A DNA stretch of 13,090 bases from Candidatus Aenigmatarchaeota archaeon (GTDB lineage Archaea; EX4484-52; B79-G9). Positions 1,382 through 13,090 of the stretch are shown in pieces. Position numbers and translations under genes: made by a program. Below the pieces are notes generated by a model, which made no database searches, was not told the origin of the DNA, and was given only the letters and a program-made list of their open reading frames with translations. The stretch is from assembly GCA_023142905.1 (NCBI GenBank), contig JAGLIP010000008.1:1-13090 (forward strand). Reading direction: 5' to 3'. Each line of letters begins with the position of its first letter. Positions within the stretch are counted from its first letter, which is position 1.

Positions 1382-1681
1382 TTACATCCAAAAAAAGCGT
1401 TCAATACCAAATAAGCGGATAGAATTTGTGATTGGTTGTATAACTATTGTTTTAATATATTCCAAAACATATCCCAACTGGATTTTTGTTTTTGCCGATA
1501 TTTTTTCATTTTTATCTTGTTTAAAATCAAAAAAATCAAAACTTTGATTATTTTCACTGTTTCGATTACCTGTTTCATTAAATCCTATGATGTCTACATA
1601 CTCATCGGTTTTGTTTTCGCCATTATATTCAAATGTCTTATTTTTTTCAGTCATATTTTGTGTTTCATTTTGCAATTCTGG
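1382..1681 (-). CDS. -1-frame continuation of the MopE-like gene
   Basis: The frame -1 to the MopE-like gene is open from 1720 down to a TAA at 1382. Joined at the A9 run (1682-1690) it adds about 99 residues after KK: PELQNETQNMTEKNKTFEYN and on. It has six N-X-S/T sequons (NET, NMT, NKT, NKT, NET, NQS) within about 45 residues, the signature of the other surface proteins here and unexpected in a non-coding frame. The end is more hydrophobic (GYVLEYIKTIVIQPITNS) but is not a clear membrane helix. Three readings fit: a -1 frameshift product, an assembly or real indel in the A9 run, or a separate 90-residue gene from the ATG at 1654, which overlaps the TGA of the main frame as ATGA. The separate gene would lack a signal peptide, which sits poorly with its sequons. 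No family recognised. Confidence 0.5.
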   Translation of the reverse strand, partial: PELQNETQNMTEKNKTFEYNGENKTDEYVDIIGFNETGNRNSENNQSFDFFDFKQDKNEKISAKTKIQLGYVLEYIKTIVIQPITNSIRLFGIERFFWM

Positions 1682-3273
1682 TTTTTTTTTAATTTTTTCT
1701 CTTTTTGCTGTATTTCTTTTTCAGGCTTGCATTCTTTAGCCCATGCATCCTGATCAATCCATGCATCAAGAGTGCCTTGTGTGCAGCCTGTTTTATATTC
1801 GCCTTTATTGTTTCCTGGCTTGCAGTCAAGGATTTGCTTACAACTGCAGCCATAAAGAGCAGTTAAGTACATATTCTCGCTGTCGTAATGGTTTTTGTTC
1901 TTGTTTTCTGCAAACCACGGGATTGTACCTTCACAAAGGTCGAATTCATTAGGAACGCCATCATTGTCTTCATCCGGAAGGGCACAGACATTGTTTTCAT
2001 CTATAAACCCATCGCAGTCATTATCCAAACCATCGCAGATTTCGTCTTCAGGTGTAACTGTTGGAATTATTATGCTCCAAATGCCGATAATACATGTTTT
2101 GGTTCCAAGAGAACATATTCCAATATCACTTGTCCCGTAAATTTCTATCAGGTTTTCGTCTATAAAACCATCGCAGTCGTTGTCCGTATTATCGCATGTT
2201 TCTGATAGTGGCATAATTTCATTGTTGTCTATCCACATACCATGTTCACAGGTCTGCGTATTATTTTCGCATGCGCCTAAATTGCCTGCGTTTTGATAAA
2301 GATTTTCATCAATTTCATTGTCGCAGTCATTATCAAGAGTATCGCATATTTCTATCCCGGGAGCTGATGAAGAACATGTATTTTGCAGGTTTCCCTCAAC
2401 ACAAATGAATTGTCCTGTATTTTCGCATTCACCCACACCGCATGTTGTCGATATTGGTATGTATTTTTCGTCTATTTCTCCATCGCAGTTGTTATCAACG
2501 CCATCGCATAAAGAATCAGTCGCATTTGGATTTATGGTATCGTTATCATCATTGCAGTCCCCGCCGCATGTTGTGAACCCATCGCTGTCGTTGTCAAAAC
2601 CTTCATCGACTTCGCCATCAAGGTCATTATCGATTCCATCACATTTTTCATATTCAACAACCGTAAATGTATCGATTGGAATATATTCCCTGTTTCCTAT
2701 TCCGCCTATGCTGGATTCAAACCAAATATAAATTGTGTATACTCCGAGCCCGTGATCAGTATTATTAATTAACGGTATGATTTTGTTGAATCCTCTTGTT
2801 GAATTTATGGGTATCCAACCTTGCCAAACAACATCTTCAGTATTTATATCCGTAATTTTATCGTTATAATCATTGTGTTCTGTTCTGTTCTCTGCATCAG
2901 CAATGCCTACGCGTATGTCTACATATGGTAGGAAATAATTTCCCGTAATTGTAACTGTTTCTCCAAGATAATAAATTGCATTATTTGATGGTGCCGATGT
3001 GTCGTTTATATCATATAAAACAGAATCGTAGTCCATAAGTTCGCAATCATTCCATAAGCCATCATAAGGAATATTTACAGCTCCTGAAAAAATATAATAA
3101 TTATTATCATTGCAATCCATTGGCGTTTCTTGTCCATCCCCGTCTGTATCAACTCCCTTCGGATTACTTTCATTTCCATCTTCATCAATTGCGTACGCAT
3201 ACGGTATGACAAATAAACTAGATAAAATCACCAACAAAACAATCATTTTTCTACAATCCAAATCACTAATCAA
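1651..3273 (-). CDS. Secreted protein with MopE-type metal-binding repeats (main frame)
   Basis: About 540 residues. The N-terminus is a signal peptide: charged RK, hydrophobic MIVLLVILSSLFVIP, and likely cleavage after YAYA at residue 28. A diverged MopE half-repeat follows (DTDGDG at 42-47, then MDCNDNN and NIPYDGLWNDC), then a beta-sandwich-like region. Five repeats of the form C-D-x-x-D-N-D-C-D-x-x-I-D-E span residues 211-426; the first has Leu for the middle Cys (CDGIDNDLDGEVDE). Spacers carry Cys pairs of the type GICSLGTKTCIIGIW. Next comes a thrombospondin-type-3-like acidic loop (DEDNDGVPNEFDLC, about 432-446) and a Cys-rich segment with GCSCKQILDCKPGNNKGEY. In known proteins such repeats bind copper or calcium; binding here is inferred. 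The TTG at 3273 is preferred because GGGTGGT precedes it; GTG at 3282 overlaps that site and ATG at 3246 has no clear ribosome site. The frame stops in a Lys-rich tail at 1651, but a -1 frame continues (separate entry). Confidence 0.88.
   Translation of the reverse strand: MISDLDCRKMIVLLVILSSLFVIPYAYAIDEDGNESNPKGVDTDGDGQETPMDCNDNNYYIFSGAVNIPYDGLWNDCELMDYDSVLYDINDTSAPSNNAIYYLGETVTITGNYFLPYVDIRVGIADAENRTEHNDYNDKITDINTEDVVWQGWIPINSTRGFNKIIPLINNTDHGLGVYTIYIWFESSIGGIGNREYIPIDTFTVVEYEKCDGIDNDLDGEVDEGFDNDSDGFTTCGGDCNDDNDTINPNATDSLCDGVDNNCDGEIDEKYIPISTTCGVGECENTGQFICVEGNLQNTCSSSAPGIEICDTLDNDCDNEIDENLYQNAGNLGACENNTQTCEHGMWIDNNEIMPLSETCDNTDNDCDGFIDENLIEIYGTSDIGICSLGTKTCIIGIWSIIIPTVTPEDEICDGLDNDCDGFIDENNVCALPDEDNDGVPNEFDLCEGTIPWFAENKNKNHYDSENMYLTALYGCSCKQILDCKPGNNKGEYKTGCTQGTLDAWIDQDAWAKECKPEKEIQQKEKKLKKNQNCKMKHKI
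1681..1687 (-). other. In-phase -1 slippery heptamer A-AAA-AAC
   Basis: The main frame reads TTA AAA AAA AAC CAG here, so A-AAA-AAC matches the X-XXY-YYZ rule for -1 ribosomal frameshifting in the correct phase. Slipping back one base leads into CCA GAA TTG, the open sequon-rich frame. Downstream RNA is AT-rich with no obvious stem or pseudoknot, so efficiency is uncertain. Slippage of RNA polymerase on the A9 run would give a similar outcome. Confidence 0.45.
1996..2643 (-). repeat. Five MopE-type coding repeats
   Basis: Imperfect repeats at protein level: CDGIDNDLDGEVDE, CDGVDNNCDGEIDE, CDTLDNDCDNEIDE, CDNTDNDCDGFIDE and CDGLDNDCDGFIDE, each about 42 bases and separated by variable Cys-containing spacers. 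The first two are linked by a DNDSDGFTTCGGDCNDDN segment, the canonical MopE calcium-like loop. Confidence 0.85.
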
Positions 3274-3284
3274 AGATACCACCC
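3271..3284 (-). promoter_or_regulatory. Shine-Dalgarno and TTG start of the MopE-like gene
   Basis: GGGTGGT on the minus strand is followed by ATCT and TTG, the same arrangement as at ppsA (AGGTGAT, ATTC, TTG). It is a weaker match to the 16S tail but favours TTG at 3273 over GTG at 3282, which lies within it. Confidence 0.5.
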
Positions 3285-3540: not shown

Positions 3541-6500
3541 ATGTATCGAGATATCACTATGAACCGCCAAGTAAATTTTTTTCTTGTTGTATTTGTTTTT
3601 ATATTCTTAATGGCTGCAGAAAATGGATATGCTGCATGTGTTCCATGGACGGAAACAATTACGATTAGCTCTGTTGGAACAACAACTATGTGCTATAATG
3701 TTACGACAATTGAAGATAGTGGTCTTGACGGAATTATTAGACTGGATGCGAATAATATAATTTTAGACTGCAATGGTTCTATAATTTACGGAAACTACTT
3801 AAGTTCAAGTATCGGAATACAAAAAACTTTTGGCAATGGCAATAATGTTATTTTAAAAAACTGTACTTTTTATGGTTACACATACGGCATTTATATGTCT
3901 AGTGTGGATAACATTATAATTCAGGATAGTAATTTTAGCAGCAACACACACAACATATATTTTTCCGGAGTAAATAACAGTGAAATTTTAGACACCACAA
4001 TTAATGGCGCATCAGATTGTGGGGCGTATTTACTAAATTCTAAAAACATAACTTTTAAGAACAACACAATTGCGCAAAACACACAAAGCGGCATATATCT
4101 TTCAGGCACAACGGACAGTTGGATTGACGGGAATGATATTGTTGATAACGGGGATGGGACAAATTCTCAAATATTTTTGACTTCTTTGAGTTTAAATAAT
4201 AATATTACCGACAATTTTTTTTCCGGGAGTAATGGCGTAGCTAATTGGGCAATAAATATCAATTCCGGTTCTTTTAATTTAATTCGCAATAACGAGATAT
4301 TATTTACGGGTAATGGCGGGTTAGATAATGGGGGTATCAAAAGTAATTATGAATCAAATACAATAAAAAATAATACCATACAAAATGCAAAGGGTGTGGG
4401 TATAAAAATAGAAAATGCGGCATCAAACATAATTGACGAAAATACAATTACGGATTCTATAACTTATGGTATCTATGTGGATAATACGCTGGTACTCCCA
4501 AGCAATATGACTAATAATTTCATTAAAGGTGCGGGTACTGCGGGAATATACTTAATTGATACATCCGATTCTACAAAGATATACAACAATACGATTACAA
4601 ATACCAGCTTAAAAACATTAGGTTATGGTATCTCTATTTCCGGAGATGCACGATATAATAACATAAGTTATAATGACATATCGTATGCAACAAATAACGG
4701 ACTTTATTTTTCCAATTTTCCAAGAAATAATCAAATATATTATAATTTTTTAAGAAACAGCATACAAGATGATTTTAAAATTGAAACCATCGCTTCTGCA
4801 ACGGATAATAACATTTCTTTAAACGCGCTTACGAAAAATTTTACATATCCTACGGGTTCCGGAAACAACATTTTAGATAACATCCTCGCCAATCTTATTG
4901 TTGATAATGACACGAATCCTATCCGGGATTATTCTAATATTACCGATGCTGTTGGTGCGGCTGTGGCAGGCAGTAAGATTTTTGTCTATGATGGATATTA
5001 CAAAGAATCCATCAATCTTACTAACGATAACATGACGCTTGTGGGTGAGACTAAAGAGAACACATCTGTCAACTGCTCAAACGGAAATTACGCTTTCAAA
5101 ATCGAATCAAACAATAACATAACAATAGACAATTTTACGATTGAATGTATTTATCCCGGTCGGGGGATTTGGATTGAAAACACTAATTTCACCAATGTTT
5201 TTAATTCGATAATAAGAAATAATGGATACGGTATTTTTCTATTGAGTGCATATTATAATACACTAAAAGACATTCTTTTTAAAAATAATTATCAAGGTCT
5301 TGCACTTTTTTCAACAGAAGATAATAATATAACAAAAAATAACTTTTCTACATCTATAATGCACGATATAAATATCGGTTCTGATGCATTAAGCAACAAT
5401 ATATGGAAAAACAAGTTTACAAGCACTACTAATATATATGACGGGGGAGATAATTCTTATTGTATAAACGGCTGGGACAATTGGTATACGGACTCTTTAT
5501 CTACAAATCCGGAATGCTTTGCGGATTTCACCGCAGAGTGGAATGACTTAATAATATATGTAAACGACACAGTTAGATTGATTGTAAACCTTACCGGAGA
5601 AACAGAGATTGCGCAATTGAATGCAACCATATACTGGAATGGGACAGCTGCGAATTATTCTTTAGAGTCTTACAGCGGGAACAACATAACAGGTCAATGG
5701 TCGTATGTTTTTAATGACACGGAATTTTTGGGGTCCTACCTATTGGTTGAACTTCATAGAAAAGATGCAGATGCAGATGTTGGGAGCCATGACTTAATTA
5801 CTGTATTTGATACGAAAATACTTGAAATGAACACTTCGCTAGATAAGACAAACGAAAACATCAATCAACCCATAAATATTTTTGTAAATGTCTCAAATAA
5901 TGCATCCGCAATTGAAAATGTTACCACATACATCCTAAAGCCCGATGGGTATCTGGAAGTAAAAGAGCTCGCGCTTCAAAAAATAATTTCAGGAATCTAT
6001 TATTATTCGCTTAAATATGAAAACACAAGCCGTTCAGGAGAATATGATATAAACATAACCGCATATGCAAAAAACACAGTGACAGAAAATCAGTCATTTA
6101 CAATAAATTACGGCTGGCCATACATACAGCTTATTGAGGGAAATACAAAATATGAAAACAATACGAATTACACAAGAAGATATGGGATTTACGCAATTGG
6201 CGGCGATCTTAGAAATGTTACCGCCAGCTTATTTATTAACAGCAGCGTACTTGAATTCAATAGCGATATTAACGAAAAAAACAAATCAAATATATATCTA
6301 GAATCAACGGATGGCTGGGAAGTTGAATGGAATATAACAACAATCAATACAGGCACAAGTTATGTAAACCTTACAATTGCAAACAGCACAATTTTATCCC
6401 CCAACGGATACTATAATGAAAGAAATACAACAGTTAACATAAGCGTGGGTGGGTCAGATACAGAAGACCCAGCAATCAAAAATTTATGGGTAGAAAACGA

Positions 6501-8730
6501 TTATACAACATACAATCTAAACGAGACCGTAATAATATATGCAAATATTAGCGATAATTTTGGTGTGAAGAGCGCGTTTTTAAATATAACGCATCCAACA
6601 GGTTTTAGCGAAAACATCGCAGGCGAGAGAGTAGAAACATACGAAGATGATGTTGTAAAATTCAGATTCAACGCGGAAAACATAACAACGATTACAACCA
6701 CAACACCCTATATTTTTTATACCAATGCAAGTGACTATTCTGAAAACACCAATATATCAACGACAGAAAACTTTAACACAACAGACCAGTATTCTGTCGG
6801 TATCACCATATACGACATATACAACCGCGGTGAGTGGGTGAATGTAACGCTTGATGTCTTAAATGTCAACAGCTTGTCTGTAAGCGGATTTTCGGAGACT
6901 ATAAGTTTAAATGATACTGAAGGCAACAAAAGCATACTTCAAGACGGCACTTACTTTATAACCGCAACAAATAAGACCGGACTATACAGTATTTATGCCA
7001 ATGTGTCTAAATACAAAAACGCAGGCAATGCAACAAAAGAATTTAACATTACAGACAAGTTGATTGCATCGGTTTTTGCGCCGCCTTTAACATATAATCC
7101 TACAAGGGAAGACCCGCTTACAATAACATTCAGGATATCAACTGCGCGAGGCGAAGCATACTTATATGATGCAAATTTCACAGCATCCTGTTACCTTACA
7201 AGGGGCGGTTTCTGGGGTAGTAACAACAACACTGAAGGGACATACATCGGCTCAAACATTACATGGAGTCAATATGATGAATATTGCTTTGCCGCCCCCA
7301 CTGCAGGAACGCAGTTTAACATCACATTTAATATTTCTGATGACCCATATAACAACACAGGAATCGACACACACTTCCGGACAACAAAAAGTGAAAGCAC
7401 AACGCCTTCGGGAGGGGATGATACAATCACAACAAGCCCTTATATTGGTGGGGATATCCTGATGCCGACAACAACTGAAAAAGAAAACATAACGGATTTT
7501 GATTTTTCAATAAAACCGGAAAAACTCATGATAATTCAGGGCACGCAGGAACGGACATTTTTGGTTCTAAACAATATCGGGGATATGAAACTAGAGCTCA
7601 ACATCACAATAAAAAAAGAATGCTGTGAAATAAACACAAACAGTTCAATAACTGTAGAACCAAAAAACAAAGTAAGTGTTCCTTTAGATATATACGCAAA
7701 CCTTACAATAGAACCCAATGAATACCACACAACAATTACCGCAGAAAAAGGCGCTCTTGAAAAAACAGAAACATTAATTGTTGTTATTGAAGAAAATCCA
7801 TCTCTTGGTTCTCTTAGAAACCTAAAAGAACAATCAAATTCGCTGAAACAAACTATCGCTCAATATAAAACCGCAGGCGTTAATACTGAAAATCTTGAAA
7901 AAATGTACGAAACACTTACAACCATTCTCCTTAAGGCACAAACCGCAATAAATAACGACGACCTTGAAGCATTAAATGCAGAGATAGCTAAAGCAAAAGT
8001 AGAAAAGGCAAAACTTGAAGCAGAAATACTGGGTCTAAAGACAATCCTGTGGCTTAATGAATACAAAGAAGAGCTTATTGTCGGAATAGTTTCATCATTG
8101 ATTATTTTCTTATTTACGACAAAATTTTTGATTCCATATCTTTGGATGAAAAAAGAGCTTATGCATTTAAGAAAGAAAGAAAGAAAATTAGCTGAAGTAA
8201 GGAAGGCAACAGAAATTCAGTACTTCAAAAGGCAGATTGACGAAGCCACATTTAATAAAATAATGGCTGACAAACAAAGCGCAATAAATGATGCTAAAAT
8301 TGAAATAAGGGGTTTAGAAACATCCATATCGCTTCTAAAAAGAGGAAAATTCAGCAAAATTGAAGGGATTGAAAAATACAAAGTCTCCGGCAAATTAAAA
8401 CAAAACATGAACGGATTTACCGTAATGATTAAAAAACCATTTGCAAAAAAAGAAAATACAATTCATGAAAAAAAAATAGAAGAATTCTCATTTACTCCAA
8501 AAAAAAGCAACATACTAAAGGATACCTCAAGAAGCTCTAAAGGTTCTATTGCAAAAATCTTAAGAAAATACCACAACTGGAAAATTAAAAAACAAGAAAG
8601 AAAACTTGTTCATGAAATAGATTCACTTGAAACCGAAGAAACAAAGCTTGAAAACGAAGAATCAAAAATAAAAAGAGCGATTAATGAGCTTAAAAAAGAA
8701 AAAGAAGAACTTGAAAACTCCGAAAAATAA
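3541..8730 (+). CDS. Giant membrane-anchored surface protein with parallel beta-helix, Ig-like and coiled-coil regions
   Basis: 1729 residues. A signal peptide (FFLVVFVFIFLMAA, cleavage near NGYA) is followed by two NosD/pectate-lyase-like right-handed beta-helix blocks. Block one is about residues 30-450 with rungs such as NIILDCNGSIIYGN and NNTIAQNTQSGIYLSG; block two restarts at about 455 (FVYDGYYKESINLTNDNMTL) and ends at INGWDNWYTD near 641-651. About six Ig- or FN3-like beta domains follow to about 1290, then a Thr-rich linker, an NEW3-like beta domain (about 1310-1420), a coiled coil (about 1420-1505), one membrane helix (about 1512-1536) and a basic cytoplasmic tail. The tail has a SHOCT-like motif (YFKRQIDEATFNKIMAD from 1561) and a Lys/Glu coiled coil to the end. 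Sequons are frequent throughout the ectodomain. A glycan-binding, adhesive or envelope-structural role is inferred; no catalytic residues are recognised. ATG 3541 suits the TATA box; ATG at 3559 is the alternative and still gives the full signal peptide. Confidence 0.9.
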   Translation: MYRDITMNRQVNFFLVVFVFIFLMAAENGYAACVPWTETITISSVGTTTMCYNVTTIEDSGLDGIIRLDANNIILDCNGSIIYGNYLSSSIGIQKTFGNGNNVILKNCTFYGYTYGIYMSSVDNIIIQDSNFSSNTHNIYFSGVNNSEILDTTINGASDCGAYLLNSKNITFKNNTIAQNTQSGIYLSGTTDSWIDGNDIVDNGDGTNSQIFLTSLSLNNNITDNFFSGSNGVANWAININSGSFNLIRNNEILFTGNGGLDNGGIKSNYESNTIKNNTIQNAKGVGIKIENAASNIIDENTITDSITYGIYVDNTLVLPSNMTNNFIKGAGTAGIYLIDTSDSTKIYNNTITNTSLKTLGYGISISGDARYNNISYNDISYATNNGLYFSNFPRNNQIYYNFLRNSIQDDFKIETIASATDNNISLNALTKNFTYPTGSGNNILDNILANLIVDNDTNPIRDYSNITDAVGAAVAGSKIFVYDGYYKESINLTNDNMTLVGETKENTSVNCSNGNYAFKIESNNNITIDNFTIECIYPGRGIWIENTNFTNVFNSIIRNNGYGIFLLSAYYNTLKDILFKNNYQGLALFSTEDNNITKNNFSTSIMHDINIGSDALSNNIWKNKFTSTTNIYDGGDNSYCINGWDNWYTDSLSTNPECFADFTAEWNDLIIYVNDTVRLIVNLTGETEIAQLNATIYWNGTAANYSLESYSGNNITGQWSYVFNDTEFLGSYLLVELHRKDADADVGSHDLITVFDTKILEMNTSLDKTNENINQPINIFVNVSNNASAIENVTTYILKPDGYLEVKELALQKIISGIYYYSLKYENTSRSGEYDINITAYAKNTVTENQSFTINYGWPYIQLIEGNTKYENNTNYTRRYGIYAIGGDLRNVTASLFINSSVLEFNSDINEKNKSNIYLESTDGWEVEWNITTINTGTSYVNLTIANSTILSPNGYYNERNTTVNISVGGSDTEDPAIKNLWVENDYTTYNLNETVIIYANISDNFGVKSAFLNITHPTGFSENIAGERVETYEDDVVKFRFNAENITTITTTTPYIFYTNASDYSENTNISTTENFNTTDQYSVGITIYDIYNRGEWVNVTLDVLNVNSLSVSGFSETISLNDTEGNKSILQDGTYFITATNKTGLYSIYANVSKYKNAGNATKEFNITDKLIASVFAPPLTYNPTREDPLTITFRISTARGEAYLYDANFTASCYLTRGGFWGSNNNTEGTYIGSNITWSQYDEYCFAAPTAGTQFNITFNISDDPYNNTGIDTHFRTTKSESTTPSGGDDTITTSPYIGGDILMPTTTEKENITDFDFSIKPEKLMIIQGTQERTFLVLNNIGDMKLELNITIKKECCEINTNSSITVEPKNKVSVPLDIYANLTIEPNEYHTTITAEKGALEKTETLIVVIEENPSLGSLRNLKEQSNSLKQTIAQYKTAGVNTENLEKMYETLTTILLKAQTAINNDDLEALNAEIAKAKVEKAKLEAEILGLKTILWLNEYKEELIVGIVSSLIIFLFTTKFLIPYLWMKKELMHLRKKERKLAEVRKATEIQYFKRQIDEATFNKIMADKQSAINDAKIEIRGLETSISLLKRGKFSKIEGIEKYKVSGKLKQNMNGFTVMIKKPFAKKENTIHEKKIEEFSFTPKKSNILKDTSRSSKGSIAKILRKYHNWKIKKQERKLVHEIDSLETEETKLENEESKIKRAINELKKEKEELENSEK

Positions 8731-8880: not shown

Positions 8881-11800
8881 TCATTGTGGCGATAAAAATG
8901 GTTTTGTTTCTGCTAACATTTCTGTATTTTTGCTTGTACTTATGTGTTCTTCAAGTATTTTGAGTGTTTCTTTTATGCGGCTGGCTATTTTTTCGTCATG
9001 ATGCGGTGGAAGCGTTGTTCTCGAATAGACACTTATTATTTTTGAAAGATATATGTCTGCTTCTTTGTATTTTTTGCGCTTTAAAAGATGCATTACGATC
9101 TCAAGTTCTTTTTCAAGAACTTTGAAATATATCGGGTCTCTTTTTTGCATTTTTCTATTAATTAGCCAGCTTAAAAAAACCACAATAAACATACTGACGA
9201 ATAATATTTGAAGCAAACTAACTTCATTAACTGGTTCATTAATTACGATTACCTCTTTTGGGGCATCAACAGAAACATTGAACCATACTCTCTTTTGCAA
9301 AATATTATCTTCATAATCAAAGCATCTGACCTCAAGAATATGTTCGCCGTTTTTTAAATCCGTTATTGTTTTAGTTTCGGCATAACTTATCCACCCTTTA
9401 GAGTCTAGTCTATAGACACAAACAGGGTTAAAATAATTTGAGCTTATGTTTATAGTAACATTTGTTACCATAATCAAGCTACCGTTTATAATGGATGTGA
9501 TATTAAATTCAAGTTCTTTCAATTTTGTAAAATATATGTATGGTTTTGAAAAATCATATAGGTTATAATTACTGTCAATTTCATAGAATATATATAGTTC
9601 CTTATTTTCCACAACAAACCTTAATATGGGGTCTTCTTCAACCACATAGTGTTCGTACAGGTAAACATTGATGTCATCACTTGTGTTTGCCACTTCTTTT
9701 GGAATTACATCATATACAATAATCGTATGGTTTGATGTTGCCGTTAAATCAAGAACAATGTCTTTGGTTGTATTCCTTGAAACATTCACCCACGCGTCTG
9801 GCTCTTCTGTCTTTTTGACATCCATTTCTAAATTATTCTCAAATAAAAATTCTTCAAGGTCTTCACATATCCGTGGATATTTTTCGCAAATTTCCTTAAT
9901 ATTGACAAGACCATAAGTATAGTTTTCTTCGGTCTCTTCCACTGCAAAACTGCTGCTGCTTGATGTTTTTTCTGGATCTATTAGGGGTACATCTTCGATA
10001 GTTGTAATGGACAGCGTGTCTGAAAAAAACCCGCCATAGGGTGTTGAAATATTAAATGCAATATTGTTTGTGCCTTCAATTGAACTTTCTATGGTGAAGT
10101 TAAGAAGTATTGTTTCATTGGGTGCAATCGACGGTATTGTAATCATCGTATTATTCATCTCTTCGGTAAAATTGATGAGCGGGATTGTAGTAACATTCGT
10201 TACCAAAAATCCTAAATCCAGTGCCAATTCAAAAGATATGTTGAACAAAGTATAATTTAGAGTATTATTTATTTCAAATAACAGGTAAAATTCTCCGTCT
10301 TTTTTTACTTCATTTTCTGAAAGGTATGTTGTTGTGTTTTGGAATAAATTGTCTGAAGTGATGGATGTTATGCTTGTGCTTGTCTCGCCATGAGCCCCTT
10401 TAGATGCATCTACATAAACGGTTATTGTGTTTGGACCAATACCTACAGGAAGTATTGTTATGTTTATCGTTGTGTTTTCATAAGGATTGAGACATGTAAT
10501 ATTTAGTGTTTGATTCTCCGTTATAAGCCCTGCGGTTAAATCAATTATAATATCCAAATATGTAAGCTCGTAGGTGTTATTATTTTCAATATATATTGTG
10601 GTATTAAAAGCATTGAAAATAGATGTTGTGTTTTTTGAAGTAATATTTACTATAATATTTCCCGTCTCTGTTGGATATGCTTGGTATGCTTTCCAATAAG
10701 CAACAATCATGGCTCCTTGGGAAAGGTCATTTTCGCATGAGTAATTATACCCAAAAGCATTGCACTTACTTGTTTCTACCTTACTTGTTTTGTTGAATGC
10801 GATGTCCAAATATTCTAATACGGGGTTTTGTTCATAAGCCTCCCAATAGGCAATAATGTTTGTTGCAAGATCATATGATGTGCAGCTTGTATTTACACAG
10901 TCGTTCATTGAGGAATTTGTAAGATTAATGGCCTTTTGTCGGTATGTATCATTTCCGGTCATTTCATATGCTTTCCAGAAGCCCCGTAAAAGCATTATAG
11001 ACCCGTTTTTTGAAAGACCCTCATTTGTAAGGTTTTTTGCAATATTTTGGTATGTTGCATTGCCGGTTGCTTCATACGCATCCCAATATGCAAGAATCAT
11101 CTGGCCCTGATCTGAATTGGTGAGGTCATTCGGGTCATCGCAATTGTAATCGCCAGCCCAGACATCACAACTGTCTGCAGTTCCTTCAGTGTATCCTTTT
11201 GCAAGATACTTAGAAAACCAATTCCCTATATTTTTGAAAGAAAACCACACAGAACTAATCATTGATGATTGCCTGTCAGGACCAGTAATATTTTTCTTGA
11301 AAGGCATTGAATCATGTGTGTTGCAGTTGAAATCTTCGAGATCGTTTTCGGTGTAGTTATGGTCGCAGGTTGCGTAATAATCATACATGCCATCTGCGGG
11401 TTTAAGTATGTCAATTTCACTTATGGTGAGATTAGAAGCAATTGATTTGTACACATTGTTTTTTTCCATCAAGTAGCCTAAGGTATATCCTGTTATCATC
11501 CATGCTTGCTGTCTTTCATCATCGCATGTATATTGATTAGACCATACATCACAATTAGGTGAAACAGATGTTGTTTCTGTAAAAAATTTTGCTTTGTTTT
11601 TGAAATTATTATTTCCTATAGATAATGCAATTTTGAATGTTCCATTACCGCCGGGAAACCTGTATCCTTCGCTGCTGTTAAAAAAATATTCGTAAACTCC
11701 CTGCTTATTGATATCTTCTTGAGGGATAAATATACTGCCGCCATAACTTATGTTATATTCTTTCCATATTTTCGGATTTGACATGTTCATGAGCCGAAAA

Positions 11801-13090
11801 TACATTTTCGGATTTTCAATATGCCCCCTTAGGTAAATAGTCATATTTAGGTCATTATTTAAGTTAGGTATGCTGTTCACTTCAGGCATATAAAAACCAC
11901 CCCTATCGGGTATTGTCTCATACGCACCCCAAAATGCAGCTGCGACAAGGCCCTGCTCTTCAGGGCTTGTGCATGAATAATCTCCGGTGTTTGGATTGCA
12001 GTCAATAGAATTGTTTTTGTTTGCAAGTGCAATTGTTGCTCTTAAATATTTGTATTCTCCTGTAAGGCGATACACCTCTTTTGAAAGCAATAGATTTGTG
12101 TTTTGCTTGTTTGAATCACACACATCAGAGATACAATATTCATAAAGCTCATTAGTTTGCTCAATGGCTTGTTGGGTATAATTCCCTGTTAGCTCATAGG
12201 CTTTCAAAAGACCCATCGCAAGAAACATAGATGTGTTATCCTGTAGAGAACGGGTTGATCCTTCGTCTGAAAAAGATAATGCTTTTGATAAATAAGTGCT
12301 GTTTCCGGTTAACTCCCAAGCTTCTAAATATGCGAGAATCATAAGGCCGACATCATCCGGCGTTCGGCACGAATAATTATCCGCCCATGCATCGCAATCA
12401 TCTGCAGAGCCTAAGGTATATGATTTAGCAATTTGTTTTATTGCAGTATTTTTGGTATTTCTATAATTCTGCCACATAGAATATATCATCAATGCCTGCC
12501 TTTCAGAGCCATCAATAATTGGATCGCTGCCTGTAATTGACCATCCTGTCTGGTTTGTTGATTCGCAGTTGTAGTCTCCTTTTGTATGGTCGCATGTTGA
12601 GATGGATGGCCTGGTTGTATGCGTTATGTTTTCAATGCTTACATCCAGCAGTTTTTGCGCGTATGTGTTGTTTTGCGTTGCCGTATCTGCGGTTTTAAAG
12701 CCAATCATCATCCATGCATGATTATCTTCCGAAGCGCAGGTCTGTGTGCCTGACCAGGGAGGCGGATTTGTCCAGGGATTGCAAAGGCTTCCAGAATCAG
12801 TACGGGTGATATTTTCTGCAAGAAGACGATATTTTAGCACCCTTTTAGAAAGCGCAATTTTGATTGTTGCGTCCCCCAAAGGATATCTCTCATTTCCGGA
12901 TGAAACAAAAAAATATTCATAGACTTCCTGGCCGCCTAAATCTTCTTTTGGAATAGTGAAATTCAATTTATCTGCGCCAGTGCTTAAGGCAGCCACATTC
13001 TTCCATTTGATGTCAAAAAGCGGTTTGTAATATAATGTCGGTGCATTGATTGTTGTTGAATTGCTAATTGTTATATTCATAGCACTTCCC
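8881..13090 (-). CDS. Surface protein with tandem beta-sandwich plus six-hairpin helical toroids (N-terminus outside window)
   Basis: At least 1399 residues counted from the first Met in the window (13080). The frame is open past it to the edge and no signal peptide is seen, so the true start probably lies upstream. Two homologous units repeat about every 410 residues: a beta-sandwich (1-80, ending QEVYEYFFVSSGNERYPLGD; 405-485, ending GVYEYFFNSSEGYRFPGGNG), then six helical hairpins of the type QGQMILAYWDAYEATGNATY, as in (alpha/alpha)6 toroids. Five Cys-Cys loops match between units, for example CDAWADNYSC (about 227) with CDVWAGDYNC (about 637). Ig-like domains (about 800-1030), a Ser run (SSSSS), a domain with YDVIPKEVANTSDD, a further Ig-like domain, one membrane helix (1289-1307) and a TPR-like helical tail of about 92 residues follow. 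Sequons abound. The fold recalls glycoside hydrolases and lyases that pair a beta-sandwich with a toroid, but no catalytic residues are identifiable; glycan binding or processing at the surface is a guess. Confidence 0.88.
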   Translation of the reverse strand, partial: GSAMNITISNSTTINAPTLYYKPLFDIKWKNVAALSTGADKLNFTIPKEDLGGQEVYEYFFVSSGNERYPLGDATIKIALSKRVLKYRLLAENITRTDSGSLCNPWTNPPPWSGTQTCASEDNHAWMMIGFKTADTATQNNTYAQKLLDVSIENITHTTRPSISTCDHTKGDYNCESTNQTGWSITGSDPIIDGSERQALMIYSMWQNYRNTKNTAIKQIAKSYTLGSADDCDAWADNYSCRTPDDVGLMILAYLEAWELTGNSTYLSKALSFSDEGSTRSLQDNTSMFLAMGLLKAYELTGNYTQQAIEQTNELYEYCISDVCDSNKQNTNLLLSKEVYRLTGEYKYLRATIALANKNNSIDCNPNTGDYSCTSPEEQGLVAAAFWGAYETIPDRGGFYMPEVNSIPNLNNDLNMTIYLRGHIENPKMYFRLMNMSNPKIWKEYNISYGGSIFIPQEDINKQGVYEYFFNSSEGYRFPGGNGTFKIALSIGNNNFKNKAKFFTETTSVSPNCDVWSNQYTCDDERQQAWMITGYTLGYLMEKNNVYKSIASNLTISEIDILKPADGMYDYYATCDHNYTENDLEDFNCNTHDSMPFKKNITGPDRQSSMISSVWFSFKNIGNWFSKYLAKGYTEGTADSCDVWAGDYNCDDPNDLTNSDQGQMILAYWDAYEATGNATYQNIAKNLTNEGLSKNGSIMLLRGFWKAYEMTGNDTYRQKAINLTNSSMNDCVNTSCTSYDLATNIIAYWEAYEQNPVLEYLDIAFNKTSKVETSKCNAFGYNYSCENDLSQGAMIVAYWKAYQAYPTETGNIIVNITSKNTTSIFNAFNTTIYIENNNTYELTYLDIIIDLTAGLITENQTLNITCLNPYENTTINITILPVGIGPNTITVYVDASKGAHGETSTSITSITSDNLFQNTTTYLSENEVKKDGEFYLLFEINNTLNYTLFNISFELALDLGFLVTNVTTIPLINFTEEMNNTMITIPSIAPNETILLNFTIESSIEGTNNIAFNISTPYGGFFSDTLSITTIEDVPLIDPEKTSSSSSFAVEETEENYTYGLVNIKEICEKYPRICEDLEEFLFENNLEMDVKKTEEPDAWVNVSRNTTKDIVLDLTATSNHTIIVYDVIPKEVANTSDDINVYLYEHYVVEEDPILRFVVENKELYIFYEIDSNYNLYDFSKPYIYFTKLKELEFNITSIINGSLIMVTNVTINISSNYFNPVCVYRLDSKGWISYAETKTITDLKNGEHILEVRCFDYEDNILQKRVWFNVSVDAPKEVIVINEPVNEVSLLQILFVSMFIVVFLSWLINRKMQKRDPIYFKVLEKELEIVMHLLKRKKYKEADIYLSKIISVYSRTTLPPHHDEKIASRIKETLKILEEHISTSKNTEMLAETKPFLSPQ
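10680..13080 (-). repeat. Internal protein-level duplication (two units of about 410 residues)
   Basis: Unit 1 (about 13080-11880) and unit 2 (about 11870-10680) align throughout: beta-sandwich, then paired loops CNPW...TC/CDVWSNQYTC, CDHTKGDYNC/CDHN...FNC, CDAWADNYSC/CDVWAGDYNC, CISDVC/CVNTSC and CNPNTGDYSC/CNAFGYNYSC, each loop followed by a helical hairpin. Divergence is high at DNA level, so the duplication is old. Confidence 0.8.

What the first reader, a model, noticed from the sequence alone, without database searches (positions are those of the whole stretch)
1382..1720. MopE-like gene may be completed by -1 frameshifting at A-AAA-AAC
The main frame ends in a short Lys-rich tail, while the -1 frame is open for about 110 codons from 1720 to 1382. 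Where they overlap, the main frame reads TTA AAA AAA AAC, placing a textbook A-AAA-AAC heptamer in the right phase, and slipping leads directly into the open frame. That frame carries six N-X-S/T sequons in about 45 residues, matching the glycosylated style of its neighbours, so it is probably translated and exported as part of the same polypeptide. Programmed frameshifting in archaea is rarely documented. An A9 run at 8468-8476 in the intact beta-helix gene shows that such runs are not automatically assembly errors here. A 1-base homopolymer error or a true mutation remain serious alternatives.
Basis: partly seen in the sequence, partly recalled or inferred. Interest (0 to 1): 0.75.

Follow-up and report, generated by a model that had tools for sequence, protein, structure and literature searches.

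The report
Surface-protein gene split at poly-A run
A small slip in an A-rich stretch has probably cut the sugar-site-rich tail off a surface-protein gene of an uncultured archaeon; two sister species carry the gene whole, and nothing found here shows that the cell is built to bridge the gap.

Summary
In detail: the MopE-repeat gene (3282..1651, minus) ends early, the -1 frame is open 1720..1382, and an in-phase A-AAA-AAC lies in the A9 run 1682-1690. The -1 frame is real coding sequence: two same-genus genomes read straight through into a homologous, sequon-rich tail. A one-off assembly error is unlikely: the tail is held as a separate 90-aa ORF with 5 contigs, and no fused same-species protein was among the 120 listed; no reads were seen. 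Programmed frameshifting is not supported. The heptamer is commonplace (133 in phase in 307 ORFs), no RNA structure stands out downstream, and both relatives lack the break and the A9. The tail may be under relaxed constraint here: 15 versus 3 lineage-specific residues, body 36 versus 33 (alignment-sensitive). Best account: a recent slippage indel in a poly-Lys tract truncates the protein, with leaky full-length product possible but unproven. Archaeal fucA1 has the same anatomy and also has whole relatives (PMC8211752, passages), so recoding is not excluded.

The parts
1651..3282 (-). Main frame: MopE-repeat protein (six PF11617 stretches), hydrophobic leader at the N-terminus by eye, truncated Lys-rich C-terminus
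   Evidence: P0001 is the same frame from a slightly later start
1682..1690 (-). A9 run; the frame break relative to relatives lies in or next to it
1681..1687 (-). In-phase A-AAA-AAC heptamer
   Evidence: commonplace
1693..1698 (-). A6 run in the same Lys tract, an alternative place for the indel (both frames are open here)
1382..1720 (-). -1 open frame; from 1681 on homologous to the C-terminal tails of two same-genus relatives
1382..1654 (-). Tail read as its own 90-aa ORF (ATG 1654-1652 overlaps the main TGA 1653-1651), as held in the protein database (P0121, 5 contigs)
1523..1537 (-). Five-residue in-frame insertion DFFDF, absent from both relatives
1448..1480 (-). QLGYVLEYIKT: region where both relatives share FWD, absent here, with a net four-residue insertion
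1388..1390 (-). TGG where both relatives have their TGA stop; the tail runs on two codons (WM) to TAA

Best explanation
A real, recent, lineage-specific frame-breaking indel in the poly-A (poly-Lys) tract, most simply by replication slippage, has separated a roughly 100-residue sequon-rich C-terminal tail from an exported MopE-repeat protein. Shown: two relatives are continuous, and the separated tail is held in the database with 5 contigs. Inferred: the main product is the truncated protein ending ...KKNQNCKMKHKI; the tail is made only at whatever low level RNA polymerase or ribosomes slip on A9/A-AAA-AAC, without a dedicated programme; and it has begun to lose constraint. The separate 90-aa ORF lacks the leader and would not be expected to be exported if it were translated from its own ATG.
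For: Two of the three other same-genus genomes (G001, G003; G002 had no match, 74% complete) carry one open frame through the region with a homologous tail. The tail is a separate ORF in P0121, 5 contigs, longest 54,436 nt; the main frame is P0001, 3 member sequences, 2 contigs, same longest contig; the window's own contig may be among them. One search listed no same-species fused protein among its best 120 (next best 67% identity). Lineage-specific residue changes (window vs G001, polarised by G003): body 36 vs 33, tail 15 vs 3, binomial p 0.0075. Tail dN/dS to G003 is 0.71 for the window and 0.39 for G001; in the body 0.12 and 0.17. The FWD shared by the relatives and their stop codon are lost. 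Neutral decay over the whole branch (half of dS) would leave the tail open in 0.5% of simulations, so the break is recent or the tail was long translated. PMC3711429 (passages) suggests that a singleton frameshift near a 3' end is more likely an indel mutation than one placed elsewhere in a gene.
Against: No reads were seen, and the contigs behind P0121 and P0001 may come from the same samples. The same paper expects singletons validated by BLASTp to be mostly sequencing errors. The relaxed-constraint test rests on 18 sites: two of the 15 are doubtful placements, one of six alignment settings gave 14 vs 5 (p 0.064), tail against body by Fisher gave p 0.03 to 0.12, codon positions 1+2 gave 24 vs 12 (p 0.065), and the tail end block alone 10 vs 3 (p 0.09). 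Tail dN/dS window-G001 is 0.38, the same as between the two intact tails (0.39), so the -1 frame still looks coding. No stop has appeared in it.
Confidence: 0.65

Rival explanations
1. Functional slippage: ribosomal -1 frameshifting at A-AAA-AAC, or RNA polymerase slippage on A9, makes a useful share of full-length protein, as in archaeal fucA1; selected or merely tolerated.
For: In-phase heptamer and homologous -1 frame. No stops and net in-frame insertions in the tail. fucA1 has the same anatomy: A-AAA-AAT, split in only some strains, relatives full length with an A stretch one shorter, about 5% (E. coli) to 10% (in vitro) efficiency (PMC8211752, passages). Indels at an 8A repeat are bypassed to functional protein in a laboratory drift of a DNA methyltransferase (PMC3812077, abstract and passages).
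Against: No downstream structure stands out, z 0.14 to 1.0 (pseudoknots not modelled). The heptamer is not conserved at the site and is commonplace. Of the seven coding runs of nine that could be compared, six (five A9 and one T9 in sense) lie in genes that a relative spans in one frame. Tail constraint may be lowered.
Confidence: 0.17
2. Consensus or assembly error in the homopolymer; the gene is whole in the organism.
For: The window lies in a 218-contig, 80% complete assembly. Both relatives are whole. The tail still looks coding. PMC3711429 expects BLASTp-validated singletons to be mostly sequencing errors.
Against: The separated tail is held with 5 contigs. Of 130 relatives' ORFs compared with 41 stretches of this assembly 2 were flagged: this gene and, by my reading, a gap between adjacent genes. 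Tail changes are lineage-specific.
Confidence: 0.12
3. Phase variation: run length switches in the population, so the tail is on in some cells and off in others.
For: Surface protein (leader by eye), homopolymer in the reading frame, tail still open.
Against: The database copies found are in the split state and no fused same-species form was listed. A9 is short for a phase-variable tract (recalled). Relatives lack the A9.
Confidence: 0.04
4. Translational coupling: ribosomes stop at TGA and restart at the overlapping ATG (ATGA), making the tail as a separate 90-aa protein.
For: ATGA overlap at 1651-1654; the tail is held as its own ORF.
Against: The same letters AATATGACT stand inside G001's intact frame, so the overlap is an old accident; a separate tail has no leader for export.
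Confidence: 0.02

Closest known systems
fucA1 alpha-L-fucosidase of Saccharolobus solfataricus (A-AAA-AAT; PMC8211752, passages seen)
   Same: Archaeal gene split in the -1 direction at a poly-A heptamer; relatives carry it whole
   Different: There a putative stem-loop and tandem rare codons flank the site and full-length protein was shown; here no structure stands out, there are no expression data, and the split-off part is a fast-evolving tail
Magnesium chelatase genes of Methanocaldococcus and Methanococcus (A_AAA_AAR; PMC5009743, passages seen)
   Same: Archaeal overlapping ORFs at a poly-A heptamer
   Different: There the heptamer is under strong purifying selection across genera and shifts strongly in heterologous tests; here it is not conserved
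Singleton indel frameshifts / hypothetical pseudogenes of the GeneTack survey (PMC3711429, passages seen)
   Same: One species, no conserved shift site, break validated by whole homologues, near the 3' end
   Different: The body of the protein is intact and constrained, so this is truncation rather than gene death
PF11617 MopE-type putative metal-binding repeat proteins
   Same: Six repeat stretches, total over the curated cut-off
   Different: Family name only; metal binding not tested, and the tail is outside the family
Haloarchaeal tailed-virus G-T frameshifts, among them A_AAA_AAC in HCTV-2 (PMC5009743, passages seen)
   Same: Same heptamer with an archaeal host
   Different: Viral tail-assembly recoding, predicted; here a cellular gene with no conservation of the site

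Membership tests
Programmed -1 ribosomal frameshifting | X-XXY-YYZ heptamer in the right phase inside the frame overlap | tested here: met
   but 133 such A-AAA-AAC sites in 307 ORFs
Programmed -1 ribosomal frameshifting | Stimulatory structure 5-9 nt downstream | tested here: not met
   four folds, 0 to -7.3 kcal/mol, none better than the mean of its shuffles (z 0.14 to 1.0); pseudoknots not modelled
Programmed -1 ribosomal frameshifting | Shift site and split frame conserved in homologues (GeneTack: cluster of five or more, conserved site) | tested here: not met
   both same-genus homologues whole, no A9 at the site; only two homologues available; G003 has an A8 with in-phase A-AAA-AAA nearby
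Programmed -1 ribosomal frameshifting | Joined product made in cells | not testable with these tools
   needs proteomics or a reporter
Programmed transcriptional realignment on A9 | Run of nine or more A in the frame overlap | tested here: met
   heterogeneous transcripts not testable
Lineage-specific indel frameshift (truncation) | Whole gene in close relatives, broken here, tail homologous | tested here: met
Lineage-specific indel frameshift (truncation) | Relaxed constraint beyond the break | tested here: inconclusive
   15 vs 3 against 36 vs 33, alignment-sensitive; tail dN/dS 0.71 to G003 (G001: 0.39) but 0.38 to G001
PF11617 Cu-binding_MopE | Profile match over curated cut-off | tested here: met
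   97.4 bits, cut-off 27, six stretches
Translational coupling | ORF2 start at ORF1 stop | tested here: met
   ATGA; the same letters stand within G001's intact frame, so not evidence of function

The most novel reading that the evidence does not exclude
A cellular archaeal gene, beside fucA1, in which slippage on A-AAA-AAC/A9 is used to set the ratio of a short and a long, tail-bearing form of a glycosylated surface protein.
Probability: 0.07. Interest if true: 0.75.

Novelty: new member of a known kind. Interest (0 to 1): 0.27.

Why it matters
It is a case of how an A-rich archaeal genome may lose a protein tail through a homopolymer indel, and a warning that an in-phase slippery heptamer in such genomes is not evidence of recoding: it occurs about once per 2.4 kb of coding sequence here. 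If slippage were shown, it would add to a very short list: PMC8211752 (passages) counts one reported archaeal case of -1 programmed frameshifting, besides predicted magnesium-chelatase and viral cases (PMC5009743, passages).

Tried and rejected
A database search with the G001 tail region alone scored 46 candidates and returned none at E <= 0.001, not even the G003 homologue. No shared C-terminal sorting motif: among the ends of 902 ORFs of 100 aa or more from the three genomes' stretches, the relatives' last 30 residues matched only the two relatives' own proteins below E = 1; the window tail is under 100 aa and was not in that set. The AlphaFold model of the intact G001 protein was too poor to use (mean pLDDT 35), so no fold search was made. 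Six heptamer sites with long -1 open frames were looked at, this one included: the longest is the next gene overlapping a glycosyltransferase-like ORF by a few codons; the other four lie inside ORFs that go on for 42 to 481 codons (names by eye). A flagged frame change at a T9 run (L132) reads as a gap between two adjacent genes. A tempting argument from the scarcity of A9 runs was weakened: the share of runs that is coding does not fall at nine. A paper search on MopE in archaea gave nothing I judged relevant among the 10 of 34 papers listed.

Full report
What is in the sequence. The MopE-repeat gene on the minus strand (3282..1651) ends ...KEKKLKKNQNCKMKHKI*, and the -1 frame is open from 1720 to 1382. 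The run at 1682-1690 is A9, read TTA AAA AAA AAC, so A-AAA-AAC is in phase. Pfam finds six PF11617 stretches in the main frame and only three sub-threshold matches in the -1 frame. The window is one of 218 contigs of a 1.04-Mb, 80% complete assembly, in which the main frame matches only itself.

The -1 frame is coding. Of 61 genomes searched, the own one included, 15 had a match. Outside the own genome only two, both of the same genus, matched over most of the protein: G001 (69% identity; L002) and G003 (67%; L003); the third same-genus genome had none and the rest matched over parts. Both homologues read on in one frame for 106 and 164 residues past the KECKP shared with the window. With the G001 protein as query the window tail is found at E = 7.5e-18, 48% identity, and the DNA CAAAATGAAACACAAAATATGACT is shared letter for letter with G001.

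Is the break real? The protein database holds the main frame as P0001 (3 member sequences, 2 contigs, longest 54,436 nt) and the tail as its own 90-aa ORF, P0121, with 5 contigs and the same longest contig. A gene caller would not be expected to call that ORF inside a whole gene (inference). No same-species fused protein was among the 120 listed of 4,925 matches, which scored only the 7,976 candidates sharing most words. Whether the contigs come from independent samples was not seen, and the window's contig may be one of them. As a background, 130 ORFs of G001 and G003 had orthologue-like hits in the 41 G000 stretches; two were flagged for a frame change, this gene and one that I read as a gap between adjacent genes. 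In the reverse direction G001 had 2 of 141 flagged: the same artefact and one gene with an A-run length difference plus an upstream stop. G003 had 0 of 42.

Is it programmed? In 307 ORFs of 120 aa or more in G000 there are 133 in-phase A-AAA-AAC, 279 A-AAA-AAA, 117 A-AAA-AAG and 108 A-AAA-AAT sites, this one included; two that I looked at lie inside long uninterrupted ORFs resembling HMG-CoA reductase and aconitase X (names recalled from the sequence, not searched). RNA folded from the base after the run (three lengths) or spanning it is no more stable than its shuffles (z 0.14 to 1.0). At the site G001 has AAG followed by A7. G003 has A6 there, and an A8 with an in-phase A-AAA-AAA a little upstream in the same Lys tract. 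Of 14 runs of nine in the stretches, six (five A9, one T9 in sense) lie in genes that a relative's protein spans in one frame, one is this site, one is the case read as intergenic, and six had no relative among the fetched stretches. By the table of PMC3711429 (passages) a programmed shift needs a cluster of five or more and a conserved site; neither is met, with only two homologues to test. Against dismissing it: fucA1 also has whole relatives whose A stretch is one shorter, and still yields about 5% (E. coli) to 10% (in vitro) full-length protein (PMC8211752, passages).

Selection on the tail. Using G003 to polarise, the body shows 36 window-specific and 33 G001-specific residue changes in 412 columns, the tail 15 and 3 in 88. 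Five of six alignment settings agree (p 0.0075 to 0.019) and one gives 14 vs 5, p 0.064; tail against body by Fisher gives p 0.029 to 0.040 in five and 0.12 in one. Codon positions 1+2 give 24 vs 12, p 0.065, and the end block alone 10 vs 3, p 0.09. Two of the 15 sit where the aligner mis-registers the start of the tail by my reading; 13 vs 3 remain (not retested). Tail dN/dS to G003 is 0.71 for the window and 0.39 for G001, but window-G001 is 0.38. The FWD shared by the relatives is gone, a five- and a four-residue insertion have appeared, and the relatives' TGA stop is TGG. On the other side the frame has no stop; whole-branch neutrality would leave 92 codons open in 0.5% of simulations, 0.2 substitutions per site in 6.7%. 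I read this as a tail that was translated for most of the lineage's history under loose constraint and was cut off recently.

Slippage. Runs of nine A or T number 14 in 375 kb of G000 against means of 48 (order 6) or 84 (order 4) in Markov sequences, while runs of eight number 171 against 139 or 193. In G001 the counts for eight and nine are 182 and 12, in G003 63 and 12, so the drop is weaker in G003. PMC1088944 (passages) reads selection against slippage from a fall in the coding share of runs; that share does not fall here (0.86, 0.89 and 1.00 for seven, eight and nine in G000, with ORFs called by length alone). The scarcity of A9 therefore fits instability of such runs but is no evidence of transcriptional slippage.

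Verdict. Real feature, correctly described. The likely nature is a lineage-specific truncating indel; recoding is unproven and has none of its stronger marks.

Noticed in passing
L131:3525-3942 (G000) vs L236:3880-4110 (G001): A gene open in G000 carries a stop and an A-run length difference in G001, so homopolymer frame breaks occur in the sister genome too.
   Followed up: partly
41 stretches of G000, window included: A/T runs of nine are three- to six-fold rarer than two Markov expectations while runs of eight are not; the coding share of runs does not fall at nine.
   Followed up: partly
window 1388-1390: Relatives' TGA stop is TGG here; the tail gains two residues before TAA.
   Followed up: yes
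window 8881-13089: Open frame of 1402 codons running off the window end: Cys-containing segments rich in sequons, a hydrophobic stretch and a charged C-terminal tail by eye; only a weak sub-threshold Pfam match (C5-epim_C).
   Followed up: no
window 3541-8730: 1729-aa beta-helix/NosD-like protein with a C-terminal hydrophobic stretch and long charged tail by eye; G001 (L209) has an 84% match to its C-terminal part in an ORF reaching the contig end and, beside it, a second ORF 28% alike.
   Followed up: no
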